DNA from: Streptomyces sp. AJS327
Lineage (GTDB): Bacteria; Actinomycetota; Actinomycetes; Streptomycetales; Streptomycetaceae
NCBI RefSeq assembly: GCF_013450295.1
Contig: NZ_SKBR01000001.1
Coordinates: forward strand, 252,001-316,000
DNA length: 64,000 nucleotides
Direction: 5' to 3'
Part shown: piece after piece, positions 27,105 through 31,898 of the stretch
Position numbering within the stretch: the stretch's first letter is position 1
Layout of the letters: every line of letters begins with the position of its first letter
Notes under the pieces: generated by a model
What the model was told of the DNA's origin: nothing
Databases searched by the model: none
Seen by the model: the letters and a program-made list of their open reading frames with translations, nothing else
Position numbers and translations under genes: made by a program

Positions 27105-28640
27105 TCAGCGGCTGGGGGCGGTGCAGGTGGAGGGGGAGGGCTTGCCGTCGGGCCAGGCCACCCGGACGAGGGTGATCTTGCTCTGGCCCTGTTCCCACTC
27201 CGGGTTGAGCCGTACGACGTGCACCGCCTTGTTGTGCGCGCTGCCGGTGTTGTCGAGGCAGATCCAGCCGCTGACCCCGGGGACCTTGTCCACGTTCTTC
27301 AGCCGCCGCCAGCCGTCCCACACCTCGTCCAGCCGGGGTGTCCGGCGTCCGTTGTCCGACTGGAGACGGATGGAGGTGATGGCGGTGCGGGCCGCGTCGT
27401 AGGTGGTCATGAGGCGGGAGTCGGTCAGGCTGGCGCCCTTCAGTTTGCTGGCCGCCACGCGCAGCGCCGCGAGTTCCTTGCGGGCGCTCCGTGCCTCGGG
27501 GGCGTCGGAGGTCTTCCAGGCGTCGGGGTGGGCCACCGAGGCGTACTCGACGGTGACGCGTTTCAGCGCCTTGCGCCACTCGTCGGTCCTGTCCTTCGGC
27601 ACGTACGAGTCGACGGTCGAGGCTCCCGAACCCGTGATGATCCGGAAGGTGTTGCCGGTGTTCTCACACGGCTGGTCGCCCAGTTTCTCGACCAGTAGCC
27701 GGAGTTGGGGTGGGCGTCCGGCGAAGAACACGGTGTCGCTGCCGGATTGGCAGATGTTCTGCACGATGTTCTGGAAGTCCCCGGCCAGCGTCCGGTCGTC
27801 GTCGCCGCGCCGGGTCGAGGTGTACTGCTCGGACTCCAGCGCCCCCGCGGAGCGTTTGGCCTCGAACGCCTCGCGCAGGGTGCGGACGTAGCTGTCGCCC
27901 GGGCGGACGTCCTCGACCAGGAAGGCGTCCCGCATGTCGCGGTCGCGGGTGAGCACCGCGGCCTGGTCCCGGTTGGACGGGACGACCCGGCTGAACCCCG
28001 GTGTGGTCAGCGAGTCGGCGCTGATCGGGCCGCCGACCACCGGGATGCCCAGCTTCCCCGTCATGTGGCGGATGGCCTCCCCGGTGTTGCGTTCGCTCAG
28101 GTCGAAGCCGACCACCGCGCGCAGCCGGTGCTTCCCGTCCTCGGCCATCTCCTTCAACTGCCGTGCCACGGGCCGCCAGTGGGCGCTGCCCACCCCCGGG
28201 TTGGCGAGGACGAGCCGAATGGCGGGCCGCGCGGACCGGTTGGCGGCGCGCTGCGCCAGGTAGGCGCCCTGTACCTCGTGCTGTATCTGCCTTTCGGTCG
28301 CGGCCCGGCGACGCGGGGCGTTCTCGCCGGAGGTCATCGGGATCATCATGGCGACGGTCACGTAGGGCGCGTCGTCGCCGGTCACCCGGTCGTTCTCGCG
28401 CTTGATCCGGGCGCTGACGTCGGTGAGTTCACCGAAGGTGTAGCCGCCGTCGGTGACGCCCGTGCACTCGCCGTCGCGTTCCTCGACGCCCGGCGCGCAG
28501 GCGACGTCGGTGAGTCGGTCGTGGGCGACCAACGTCCCGGCGCCCAGGGCCAGTAGCAGGACGAGGTAGAGCGCGCCCTTGGTGAGTGGCCCCGCGCCGC
28601 GCGGGGGCAGGGTCCAGGTGTTCCGTGTGTTCCGCGCCAT
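27105..28640 (-). CDS. Membrane-anchored periplasmic-binding-protein-like receptor
   Basis: 511 aa from ATG 28640 (GGAGAGG upstream; a GTG at 28655 is the alternative). A single membrane helix, LTKGALYLVLLLALGAGTLVA (first 20 residues: LTKGALYLVLLLALGAGTLV), lies at about residues 20-40 with no lipobox Cys. The rest is extracytoplasmic and resembles the type I periplasmic-binding fold of branched-chain amino-acid receptors: VTVAMMIPMTSGENAP, then IRLVLANPGVG, VVGFDLSERNTGEAIRHM and IPVVGGPISADSLTTPGFSRVVPSN. Transport permeases are absent. The neighbour upstream on the same strand is a P-loop NTPase, suggesting ligand sensing rather than uptake. Four Cys could make disulfides. Confidence 0.7.
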   Translation of the reverse strand: MARNTRNTWTLPPRGAGPLTKGALYLVLLLALGAGTLVAHDRLTDVACAPGVEERDGECTGVTDGGYTFGELTDVSARIKRENDRVTGDDAPYVTVAMMIPMTSGENAPRRRAATERQIQHEVQGAYLAQRAANRSARPAIRLVLANPGVGSAHWRPVARQLKEMAEDGKHRLRAVVGFDLSERNTGEAIRHMTGKLGIPVVGGPISADSLTTPGFSRVVPSNRDQAAVLTRDRDMRDAFLVEDVRPGDSYVRTLREAFEAKRSAGALESEQYTSTRRGDDDRTLAGDFQNIVQNICQSGSDTVFFAGRPPQLRLLVEKLGDQPCENTGNTFRIITGSGASTVDSYVPKDRTDEWRKALKRVTVEYASVAHPDAWKTSDAPEARSARKELAALRVAASKLKGASLTDSRLMTTYDAARTAITSIRLQSDNGRRTPRLDEVWDGWRRLKNVDKVPGVSGWICLDNTGSAHNKAVHVVRLNPEWEQGQSKITLVRVAWPDGKPSPSTCTAPSR

Positions 28641-28736
28641 GCCGTTCCTCTCCACGTCCTCTCCACGCCAGCGGACCTCGGGCCGCGACGCGTTCCTGCC
28701 CCGTGGTGCCGGGGCGTCGCGCGTCCGGTGGGGCCG

Positions 28737-28960
28737 TGCCCGGAGAACGGGTGGGCCGTGCCCGGGTCCGGACGGTCACGTGCCCGTGTCCGGTCGTACG
28801 GTGTGCGGTTCGTGCCCGTGGTGCGGCGGCCGGTGCCCGTACGGCGTTGCGCTGGTGCCCGTACGTGCCGGTGCCGTTGCGCTTTTCTGCCCGTATGGAT
28901 GCCCGAACGGTGCGGTGTGGCTGCCCGTTTGGGGCGGTGTCCGTGCCCGTGTGTGCCCGT
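28737..28960. repeat. Helically phased TGCCCG repeat array
   Basis: TGCCCG occurs at 28737, 28759, 28781, 28813, 28834, 28856, 28888, 28900, 28922, 28944 and 28954. Gaps are 22, 22, 32, 21, 22, 32, 12, 22, 22 and 10 bp, each close to a multiple of the ~10.5-11 bp helical repeat and mostly not multiples of 3. Eight copies read TGCCCGT. The array lies in the 497-nt gap upstream of the receptor gene (read as ACGGGCA on its strand) and downstream of the NTPase stop. It looks like a cooperative protein-binding array or a curved/looped promoter element. Confidence 0.65.
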
Positions 28961-29137
28961 CCGTGTCGTCCGGAGCGGTGCTCCTCGGCGCGGGCGTGCG
29001 AGCGGTTGGTACGAGTGGTGCGGTCCGGTGCGTGCTGGTGCGGTGGTGCCGTGCCGTGCGGTGCTGGCCGGAGCCGTGGGCGCCGGGGTGGGCCGTGGCC
29101 GGGTGCCGGGGCGGAGGGTGGTGCGGACGCAGCCGGG

Positions 29138-31390
29138 CTAGAGCCGCGGCAGGTGCGGTGGTTTGACGCCGTGTACGAGGGACCGCGTCCAGGCGTGCGC
29201 GGCGCGGGTGTAGGTCTGGCTGCCCGCCGGGACACCAGCCAGGTACATCAGCTTCTGCCCGAAGGTCTCGATCTCGTCCACGTCGGGGACGGTGTCCGGT
29301 GCGGAGAACGACCAGAGCAGGTCGACGAGAGCGGCGATCACCCGGTGCGGTCCCCGGTCGCTCTCGTGCACGCACGCCGAGCAACGTCCGCTCTCGCCGG
29401 GGGCGTTGGCTTCGGCGTCCGTCAGCATCCCGCTCGGCGGCCGTGGTGCGGCGCACACGATCTGGAGGTCGGAGAGCCACTTCTCCGCCCGGCGCTCCTC
29501 CTCCGGCGTGCGCTGCTCCTCCGGCGCGCGCTGCTCCTCCGGTACGCGCCGCGCGAACTTCGTGTGCAGGGCGCAGACCACGGCGTGCCGGTCGCCCAAC
29601 GCCAGGGTGTGGTGCAGGCACTGGACGGAGTGCTCGCGCGTGCCGAAAGGGCCGGGGTCCCGCTGGTCGGAGCAGTAGACGGCGCGGGCGCGACGGTGGG
29701 CCCGCGCCCAGAGGTCGGGGTCGTCGGCGGCGAGCAGCTGGGAGAAGGCCGTGCGGACGGTGTAGTCCCGCACCAGTGGTGTGTCGCTTCCGAGCCCCGG
29801 CCAGGGCTTCTCCTGCTGCCAGTGGTCCTCGCGCGGCAGCAGCGTCAGTGCCTTCCGCTCCCAGGACTCGCTGTGCGAACCGCCAGCCGGTCCGTCCTCC
29901 GGTCCGTCGCCCGGTCCGTCGTCGGGTCCGTCGTCGGGCTCGCCGTCCGGTCGGTCGTCCGGCCGTGCGTTCCGCCCGTCGTCCGGCCGTGTGTCCGGCA
30001 GCCCGTCGTGGAACTCCCGCCAGAGGGCCTTCGCCGCCGATCCGTCCAGGGCCACCGAGAGCAACGGCAGCCACTCCCGGGCCTCCTGGTTCCGCACCAG
30101 GTGGTGGGCGAGCGCCCGGACCGCGGCCAGCTCCTGCTGTTCCCGCGTGGTCCCCTCCCGCGGCGGTTCGCGGAGCACGGTCACCATCGCGTGGATGCTG
30201 CCCGCCCGTCCCCCGCAGCGCCGCTGGATGATCCCGGTCGCGTGGGTCGACGGCGGACGGTTCGTGGGGAACATCTGCCGGACCTGGTGCCGGGACAGCT
30301 GGGGCGCCGCCAGCGGCAGCAACCACCGTCCGGGCGAGGTGTCGTGGGCGGGCTGTCCGGCCCACTGCTTCCCGGCCTCCGCGACCTGCTCGGCGCTGGT
30401 CAGTCCGGACGGGTCGCCCAGCGCGGTGAGGAGGATGACCGGCCTGGTGAGGGTGCCGGTGTCGAAGGGCGCCGCGTAGGCGCGCAGCAGCGCGGCGGTG
30501 AGCCGGTCCCCGGTCTCGGTGTGCGTGTTGTCGAGCATCAGCAGTGGCCGGGGGAGCTTGTTCCAGCGGCGTAGCTGCCCGTAGTGCGCGCTGATGTCGG
30601 CGAGTAATGCCCGGAAGAGCAGTTCATCCGCGAAGTCCGGGTCGCCCTCCGGGGCTTCGAGGGTGAACAGGAAGCGCGCGAGCTTTTCGAGCGGACCGCC
30701 CTGGAAGTACGGGGTGAGCTGCTCTCCCCACCACTCCACGGTCCGCCCGCCGGTGCGGCCTCTCTGGTGCAGCTCGGGTACGACCTGCACGGCGGTCGAG
30801 GCCACGCTCCCCAGGTACGGCACCATCGGGAAGACGTCCTGGAGCACGCCGGGCAGCAGCTCAAGCCAGCGGCGCAGCGGCCCACGCAGCATCCCGTCCC
30901 TGACGTTCTGGTCCTCTAAGAGGGACGCCAACTGAGTTTCGGCGGCGTTGAGTTGAGGGTTACTGGTGTCGCTCACCGCGTGCCATCTGGCCATGACCAG
31001 CAGGCCGATCTGGGAGCGTGGGAACGGTACGCCGCGCCGTCCGGGCACGCTGGCGGCCACGTCACGGGCGAGCCGGTGGACCGCCCCGGGCACCGGTAAC
31101 GCGCTCGACGGGCCGTCCCGCCGAAGGGTCACGGACGGCGCCCCGACATCGAGCAGCGCGGCCGGAATCCGGTCGCGGTAGCTGGCCTGGAGCGCGGCGA
31201 GCGGCGCGCTCTTGCCCGCGCCCACCCCGCCGGTGAGCTGGATGACGGGTGGACCGTTCGGGAAGGGGCTGTCGAGCAGCGCGTTCCCGTGGCGTTCCAG
31301 GCCGATGAGCGCCGGTACGAATTCGTCCAGGAGGCTGTGGTACCCGCAGAGATGGACCATCCCGTTTCCCCGTCCCCGTCGGTCCGTCAT
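29138..31390 (-). CDS. P-loop NTPase, STAND/AAA-like
   Basis: 750 aa from ATG 31390; longer upstream frame is Pro/Arg-rich low complexity and is rejected. Walker A is in IQLTGGVGAGKSAPLAAL at about residue 48-65. Walker B-like is PRPLLMLDNTH, and a following ILLTALGDPSG is sensor-like. No transmembrane helices. Two low-complexity acidic inserts (DDGPDDGPGDGPEDGP and PEEQRAPEEQRTPEEE) sit in the second half. A cysteine pair, CSACVH, near the C-terminus may bind metal. The effector domain, if any, is not recognised. It is followed on the same strand, 497 nt on, by the membrane receptor. Confidence 0.65.
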   Translation of the reverse strand: MTDRRGRGNGMVHLCGYHSLLDEFVPALIGLERHGNALLDSPFPNGPPVIQLTGGVGAGKSAPLAALQASYRDRIPAALLDVGAPSVTLRRDGPSSALPVPGAVHRLARDVAASVPGRRGVPFPRSQIGLLVMARWHAVSDTSNPQLNAAETQLASLLEDQNVRDGMLRGPLRRWLELLPGVLQDVFPMVPYLGSVASTAVQVVPELHQRGRTGGRTVEWWGEQLTPYFQGGPLEKLARFLFTLEAPEGDPDFADELLFRALLADISAHYGQLRRWNKLPRPLLMLDNTHTETGDRLTAALLRAYAAPFDTGTLTRPVILLTALGDPSGLTSAEQVAEAGKQWAGQPAHDTSPGRWLLPLAAPQLSRHQVRQMFPTNRPPSTHATGIIQRRCGGRAGSIHAMVTVLREPPREGTTREQQELAAVRALAHHLVRNQEAREWLPLLSVALDGSAAKALWREFHDGLPDTRPDDGRNARPDDRPDGEPDDGPDDGPGDGPEDGPAGGSHSESWERKALTLLPREDHWQQEKPWPGLGSDTPLVRDYTVRTAFSQLLAADDPDLWARAHRRARAVYCSDQRDPGPFGTREHSVQCLHHTLALGDRHAVVCALHTKFARRVPEEQRAPEEQRTPEEERRAEKWLSDLQIVCAAPRPPSGMLTDAEANAPGESGRCSACVHESDRGPHRVIAALVDLLWSFSAPDTVPDVDEIETFGQKLMYLAGVPAGSQTYTRAAHAWTRSLVHGVKPPHLPRL

Positions 31391-31898
31391 GTCGCAGGGG
31401 TAGCGCCCGCATCGTAGGGGCGCGCGCCAGTGGGGCGCTACGGAGCGGGGCGGTCGGCCGTGAACTGTCACCGTGCCGGGACCGTTCGGCGGTCGAACTG
31501 TTGCGATTCGGCGGTCAGTTGGGGTTGCGGCGGCCGTCGGCCGCCGGGGCGCGGACCCGTGTACGGGAGCGGGGCGTGGCGACCGGGAGCCCGGCGGGGA
31601 GTTGGGAGCCGTGGGGTGGCCGTGGGACTGGGAGCCGTGGGACTGGGGGCCGTTGGGCCGGGAGTCATGGGGCTGGGGGCGGTGGGGTGCGCGGGCCCCA
31701 CCGGTCGACCGCCCCGGTGGGGCCGACTCCGCCCACGTGCGGGGGATCGTCGGGTCCGGTGCCACCGGCTCCGCCCGCTCGCGGGGGGCCGCCGGGCGGG
31801 GTCGCACACCCGCCCGCTCGCCCGGGGCCGTGAGCCCCGGGGGTGTCCGGCCGCGCGGAGGCCCTCAGGCCGTTCCGTACTCCCTCCGCGCGGCGGTC
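31391..31898. other. Intergenic region with tandem 15-bp repeats
   Basis: 508 nt between the NTPase start and the aldehyde dehydrogenase stop. 31619-31678 holds four imperfect 15-bp units (GCCGTGGGACTGGGA and variants). The frames crossing it encode only His/Pro/Ser-rich low complexity. No gene is supported. It must contain the NTPase promoter. Confidence 0.5.

What the first reader, a model, noticed from the sequence alone, without database searches (positions are those of the whole stretch)
28737..28960. Eleven TGCCCG boxes on the DNA helical repeat
Spacings of 22, 22, 32, 21, 22, 32, 12, 22, 22 and 10 bp put all eleven boxes on nearly one helix face. Most are not multiples of three, so a coding repeat cannot explain it. 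It lies upstream of the receptor gene, as expected for a cooperative binding array.
Basis: seen in the sequence. Interest (0 to 1): 0.7.

Follow-up and report, generated by a model that had tools for sequence, protein, structure and literature searches.

The report
Phased repeat array splitting an operon
Eleven identical six-letter DNA words really do recur at about every one, two or three turns of the double helix between two bacterial genes that overlap in related bacteria, which looks like a docking strip for a DNA-binding protein but could still be a decayed repeat with no job.

Summary
Eleven exact TGCCCG boxes lie at 28737-28959 with the stated spacings. Phasing is strong at 10.85 bp (R 0.957; 0 of 5000 random placements as good), but R is only 0.25 at 10.5 bp: neighbours share a face, the whole array only on underwound DNA. 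The array fills part of a 482-bp spacer between an ATPase-like and a receptor-like gene on the same strand. In 13 of 13 relatives found at E<=1e-90 (294 other same-genus genomes searched) the upstream frame ends at or over the receptor start, so the spacer is peculiar to this genome among these. The box words are intact while the spacers are near random with a weak 22-bp echo; simulated uniform decay to that identity does not reproduce this. I favour a retained direct-repeat binding array (0.5) over a decayed 11/22-bp tandem repeat (0.37). The binder is unknown: BldC sites are excluded by sequence; SARP-like geometry partly fits, the known heptamer does not. In 1.256 Mb of this genome no second locus combines this count and phase outside a coding repeat.

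The parts
28737..28959 (+). array of eleven TGCCCG boxes (extended G TGCCCG T R: G before the box in 8 of 11, T after it in 8 of 11, then A/G in 9 of 11)
28656..29137 (.). 482-bp spacer between the two genes; 5% A, 19% T, 45% G, 31% C on the + strand
28737..28742 (+). box 1
28759..28764 (+). box 2
28781..28786 (+). box 3
28813..28818 (+). box 4
28834..28839 (+). box 5
28856..28861 (+). box 6
28888..28893 (+). box 7
28900..28905 (+). box 8
28922..28927 (+). box 9
28944..28949 (+). box 10
28954..28959 (+). box 11
27105..28655 (-). receptor-like gene (N-terminal membrane segment by eye; periplasmic-binding family match in 1 of 5 family members, none in this protein). GTG 28655 or ATG 28640 as start
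29138..31807 (-). upstream P-loop ATPase-like gene (Walker A GGVGAGKS by eye; no Pfam, NCBIfam or PADLOC match); homologue in 11 of 13 relatives
28646..28667 (.). perfect 11-bp tandem duplication (TCCTCTCCACG x2) at the receptor start

Best explanation
A long direct-repeat binding array. A sequence-specific protein recognises GTGCCCGTR and binds head to tail, one protomer per box, mostly every two helical turns (22 bp), sometimes one (10-12) or three (32). It loads cooperatively and controls the receptor gene, whose start lies 82-97 bp from the nearest box (box 1), or blocks read-through from the ATPase gene. The array probably grew by 11/22-bp duplications inside an operon whose genes overlap in relatives, and the boxes were then kept while the spacers drifted. 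Shown: boxes, phase, intact words against near-random spacers, spacer absent in the relatives looked at. Inferred: protein binding, cooperativity, direction of the regulatory effect.
For: Phase R 0.957 at 10.85 bp, 0 of 5000 random placements. Box-flank columns -10..-1 are at background (p 0.28) while +6..+9 (T, then A/G) are not (p 0.0004), so the kept element is a short word. Uniform neutral decay: 0 of 13158 simulated 11-unit arrays with adjacent identity <=0.60 (observed 0.595) keep any hexamer in >=10 units. Among 81 arrays with four TGCCCG at about 22 bp in 80 loci of other genomes, the 13 with all-pairs spacer identity below 0.60 have at most 6 boxes; this one has 11 at 0.35. Only 3 one-mismatch boxes lie in the array, one of them in phase. 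No coding explanation: 8 of 10 spacings break the frame.
Against: No conservation: the spacer is absent in 13 of 13 relatives and no box cluster lies in the stretches around the three paralogues. Box pair distances elsewhere in 1.256 Mb show no helical preference. In the own genome the control (pattern read backwards) has 48 matches against 19 for TGCCCG triples, and that has 2 against 3, so such triples as a class are not special; only this cluster is. Residual 22-bp echo outside boxes (0.442, p 0.0024), a 25-nt family of four copies at 72-76% and weak 10-11.5 bp power of A/T with boxes masked (p 0.028) point to tandem ancestry. R falls to 0.25 at 10.5 bp. Simulations with less decay (adjacent identity 0.71-0.79) do give >=10 of 11 intact words in about 1-11% of runs, and the word was picked afterwards. 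No sigma-70-like promoter or terminator-like site was found, though almost none would be expected in such G+C-rich DNA. No binder is known.
Confidence: 0.5

Rival explanations
1. A decayed tandem repeat. An 11/22-bp unit was multiplied by replication slippage in a low-complexity spacer; the helical phase is only the unit length, the intact TGCCCG words are the luckiest part of the unit, and there is no function.
For: Lag-22 identity outside boxes 0.442 vs 0.33 expected, p 0.0024; 25-nt repeat family of 4 copies; TRF sees 22 bp x 3.3 at 28795-28865 and, relaxed, 44 bp x 4.1 at 28805-28980; a perfect 11-bp duplication lies in the same spacer; A/T power at 10-11.5 bp with boxes masked, p 0.028; 22-bp and 11-bp arrays with TGCCCG occur in many phyla, with spacer identity from 0.29 to 1.0; the spacer is lineage-specific among the relatives seen.
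Against: Uniform decay to the observed identity keeps such a word in 0 of 13158 runs; gapped spacer-to-spacer identity is no better than shuffled spacers (0.811 vs 0.828, p 0.68, a weak test that saturates); periods 10, 11 and 22 are not clearly favoured over 13, 14, 16, 17, 19, 20, 23 in the 1.256 Mb sample (57, 71, 58 against 52-69).
Confidence: 0.37
2. An intrinsic DNA-shape element: G+C steps phased near 10.85 bp bend or writhe underwound DNA without a dedicated binder, acting as a topological buffer between two transcription units.
For: Single period near 11 bp, as in E. coli sequences (PMC516772, start of abstract in the search listing); R highest at 10.85; with boxes masked A/T keeps weak 10-11.5 bp power, p 0.028, best period 10.9.
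Against: With boxes masked G, T and C do not reach significance (p 0.064, 0.065, 0.37); a perfect six-letter word is not needed for a bend.
Confidence: 0.07
3. An RNA-level element of the ATPase-receptor transcript (C-rich, ACGGGCA about every 22 nt): Rho entry site, attenuator or RNA-protein array.
For: The transcript strand is C-rich and U-poor (from base counts).
Against: Spacer RNA folds like its shuffles (z 0.86; z 0.65 and -0.72 for the two pieces before the receptor start); no Rfam match at E<=1; helical phase has no role in single-stranded RNA.
Confidence: 0.06

Closest known systems
SARP / SARP-LAL operators (PimR and relatives; PMC5930380, passages read)
   Same: Direct repeats of a 7-letter word at 11 bp (10 bp in a secondary operator), same-face cooperative binding by monomers
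   Different: PimR operators hold 2-3 heptamers (CGGCAAG) at 10-11 bp; here 11 words, TGCCCG(T), mainly at 22 bp
BldC direct-repeat operators (PMC5859096, passages read)
   Same: Head-to-tail multimers on a variable number of direct repeats
   Different: BldC recognises AATTnnnn(C), AT-rich; the spacer has 5% A on the + strand and no AATT on either strand
WhiJ9 operator (PMC10294661, passages read)
   Same: Three direct repeats in an intergenic region of Streptomyces venezuelae
   Different: Consensus CGnnCTCAAC, three copies
   Same: TGCCCG at 22 bp or 11 bp spacing
   Different: 36 of 81 arrays have all-pairs spacer identity of 0.80 or more; the 13 below 0.60 have at most 6 boxes

Membership tests
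SARP-type operator | heptamer repeats 10-11 bp apart, same face | tested here: inconclusive
   Only 2 of 10 spacings are 10-12 bp, the rest are 21-22 or 32; operator definition from passages of PMC5930380
SARP-type operator | known SARP heptamer (CGGCAAG for PimR) | tested here: not met
   Box is TGCCCG(T) / (A)CGGGCA against CGGCAAG; heptamers of other SARPs not compared
SARP-type operator | bound by a SARP protein | not testable with these tools
   needs a binding assay
BldC-type operator | AATTnnnn(C) repeats | tested here: not met
   No AATT on either strand of the spacer; motif from PMC5859096 passages
Simple tandem repeat (minisatellite) | copies alike along the whole unit | tested here: inconclusive
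   Non-box lag-22 identity 0.442, p 0.0024; gapped spacer identity not above shuffles, saturating test; TRF at default settings only 28795-28865
Coding repeat | spacings multiples of three, open frame with coding bias | tested here: not met
   8 of 10 spacings not multiples of 3; my composition-based caller places no gene in 28656-29137
Conserved promoter element of the receptor family | present upstream of orthologues | tested here: not met
   13 of 13 relatives at E<=1e-90 have no spacer; weaker relatives not inspected

The most novel reading that the evidence does not exclude
An eleven-site operator for an unknown regulator that reads GTGCCCGTR, evolved from scratch by duplication inside a previously overlapping two-gene operon, with protomers set at a 10.85-bp pitch matched to underwound DNA, so that cooperative filling would respond to supercoiling as well as to the regulator, turning one coupled operon into two separately controlled genes.
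Probability: 0.15. Interest if true: 0.65.

Novelty: new variant of a known kind. Interest (0 to 1): 0.36.

Why it matters
If real, it is an unusually long direct-repeat operator with a clear before-and-after: the relatives seen keep the two genes overlapping, this genome has parted them with a phased array. That makes it a direct test case for how binding arrays arise from tandem repeats and whether the in vivo DNA pitch shapes their spacing. If it is only a decayed repeat, it warns that helical phase plus an intact word can arise from unit length alone.

Tried and rejected
Array as part of a TGCCCG regulon: pair distances of TGCCCG and CGGGCA over 1.256 Mb (array masked) show no peak at 10-12, 21-23 or 32-33 bp. 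In the own genome 19 triples were found, 9 of them this array, while the backward control pattern has 48 matches; (exact 22+22) 3 matches, 2 of them in this array, against 2 for the control. In the 36 loci I held from that search and, many step lengths occur; 6 have steps only of 10-12 or 21-23 bp (L134, L143, L154, L156, L160, L161), three of them with coding-type steps of 12 or 21. Six of the 36 I had picked myself from the list, so this is a look, not a test.

Possible second target: three CGGGCA upstream of a gene that I read as a contractile-tail sheath gene (name recalled, from no call; C1:2341235, L175). In the relatives whose match is on the + strand, so that the printed side is upstream, CGGGCA numbers 0-2, not three phased ones; rejected. 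Matches on the - strand were not turned in that script and are not counted.

No plasmid match at E<=1e-5. The peptide-word search for the receptor in named genomes gave no relative. Mobile-element end: no transposase family among the 14 proteins scanned with Pfam of the 41 gene calls in the window. Hairpin before the receptor start: not more stable than shuffles. The gapped-identity simulation saturates (shuffled spacers 0.83) and was not used as a test; there the duplication model gave 11 of 11 in 8 runs, all at the lowest decay.

Full report
What is there. The window has 118 TGCCCG on both strands (98 expected, sd 10.8). Eleven of them, all on the + strand, stand at 28737-28959 with spacings 22, 22, 32, 21, 22, 32, 12, 22, 22, 10. 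The best period over 5-40 bp is 10.85 bp with R = 0.957; 0 of 5000 random placements of eleven non-overlapping boxes in the same length do as well. At 11.0 bp R is 0.82 and at 10.5 bp it is 0.25. So neighbours lie on one side of the helix, but over the 217 bp the array drifts by about two thirds of a turn on relaxed B-DNA (10.5 bp per turn, general knowledge) and stays on one side only if the DNA is underwound.

How unusual it is. First-order Markov sequences trained on the 482-bp spacer never exceed 7 TGCCCG in 20000 trials, but some hexamer reaches 11 or more in 8 of 3000: the spacer is repetitive, and the word was chosen afterwards. In 1.256 Mb of the same genome (60 stretches of 20 kb, one trimmed, plus the window) there are 84 clusters of 8 or more identical hexamers within 225 bp (several words per locus); no word has more copies than this one's 11, though words at four other loci (L082, L075, L125 and this one's rivals at 9-bp or 12-bp steps) also reach 10-11; only two loci have R>=0.9 near the helical repeat: this one and a coding repeat of about 21 bp in L082. 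Over the whole genome 19 triples of TGCCCG with 10-34 bp steps exist and 9 are inside this array; the same pattern read backwards has 48 matches, so triples as such are not rare. The sample has no clear taste for 10-, 11- or 22-bp repeats: periods 10, 11, 13, 14, 16, 17, 19, 20, 22, 23 have 57, 71, 57, 67, 62, 52, 58, 69, 58, 58 arrays of at least 2.5 copies.

Where it sits. The spacer 28656-29137 separates two genes on the - strand: a 516-aa receptor-like protein (27105-28655) and an 889-aa protein with a P-loop seen by eye (29138-31807). Neither has a Pfam match, nor NCBIfam or PADLOC. For the receptor, a single weak PDB match (E 0.21) is to a Leu/Ile/Val-binding protein homologue, a five-member profile finds nothing in the PDB at 0.01, and 1 of 5 family members, not this one, matches Peripla_BP_6 (E 5.9e-6); 'receptor' is thus plausible, not proven. 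Among 295 same-genus genomes, 14 including the own one have a relative at E<=1e-90; the weaker relatives were not inspected for a spacer. I fetched the 13 others. A homologue of the ATPase-like protein stands upstream in 11 of 13 (in L055 and L056 another long frame does). In 12 of 13 a receptor-frame start codon overlaps the stop codon of the upstream frame (ATGA or GTGA) and in the thirteenth, L066, it begins on the last base of that stop (TGATG); in L060 the upstream frame is open for 321 codons only, with a longer one in another frame. The simplest ancestral state is therefore a coupled gene pair without a spacer, and the spacer with its array is peculiar to this lineage. The spacer's DNA finds only partial matches of about 25-110 bp in other genomes, none covering half of the array (capped list), and nothing in plasmids. 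The 9-kb stretches around three receptor paralogues in the same genome have no cluster of the box.

Binding array or decayed repeat. Aligned on the boxes, the ten columns before the box are at background (p 0.28), the four after it are not (p 0.0004: T in 8 of 11, then A/G in 9 of 11), so the kept element is G-TGCCCG-T-R. Outside boxes the identity at lag 22 is 0.442 against 0.33 expected (p 0.0024; lags 10, 11, 21, 32, 33, 44 are not significant), A/T keeps weak power at 10-11.5 bp (p 0.028; G, T and C alone do not reach 0.05), a 25-nt family of four copies at 72-76% can be seen, and a perfect 11-bp duplication lies at the receptor start. So the array has some tandem ancestry. Yet neutral, uniform decay of an 11-unit 22-bp repeat does not keep one word intact in this way: 0 of 13158 runs with adjacent identity <=0.60 (observed 0.595) keep any hexamer in 10 or more units. 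With milder decay (adjacent identity 0.71-0.79) about 1-11% do, so if the true unit identity is underestimated because of the 10-bp insertions the argument weakens. A gapped comparison meant to settle this saturated and is not used.

Mechanism. I think it most likely (0.5) that a protein binds these words head to tail, chiefly every second turn, and controls the receptor gene, whose start is 82-97 bp from the nearest box. Boxes, phase and box-only retention are shown; binding, cooperativity and effect are inferred. The geometry recalls Streptomyces direct-repeat regulators: SARP monomers on heptamers 11 bp apart, same face, cooperative (PMC5930380, passages); BldC filaments on variable numbers of repeats (PMC5859096, passages); WhiJ9 on three direct repeats (PMC10294661, passages). 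It is not a BldC site (no AATT on either strand) and not the PimR heptamer, so I file it under none of them. The full-text searches with TGCCCG, Streptomyces and direct repeats (10 papers) and with at least four of Streptomyces, tandem repeats, intergenic, 11 bp and direct repeats (15 of 33 papers listed) showed no title or abstract start that describes such an array; that is all I can say about print. The main rival (0.37) is a decayed 11/22-bp tandem repeat without function; DNA-shape and RNA-level readings are minor, the latter because the spacer folds like its shuffles and matches no Rfam family at E<=1.

Verdict.

Noticed in passing
L107:8399-8490 (own genome C1:808399-808490): An 11-bp repeat of about eight GGGCAC-like units lies some 40-130 bp upstream of an open frame that I read as an FAD-dependent oxidoreductase (name by eye).
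   Followed up: partly
L112:976-1109 (own genome C4): GGCCAG repeated mostly every 10-11 bp just upstream of a short frame that I read as an ArsR-type regulator (name by eye).
   Followed up: no
L160:4854-4930: In another same-genus genome four GAACGGGCA words at 21-22 bp with diverged spacers lie between a sugar-binding-protein-like gene and a ROK-like regulator gene (names by eye): the same architecture on a small scale.
   Followed up: partly
L224, L256, L265, L288: Variovorax, Achromobacter, a Hydrogenophaga MAG and an Ignavibacteria MAG share what looks by eye like a related 22-23 bp TGCCCG array; L256 and L288 look like one contig filed in two MAGs.
   Followed up: no
window 28646-28667: Perfect 11-bp tandem duplication that doubles the purine-rich stretch at the receptor start.
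   Followed up: partly
L082:7489-7890 (own genome C1): Coding repeat of a seven-residue unit (TEGPGGD) whose 21/22-bp steps give as high a helical R as the array, a useful control.
   Followed up: yes
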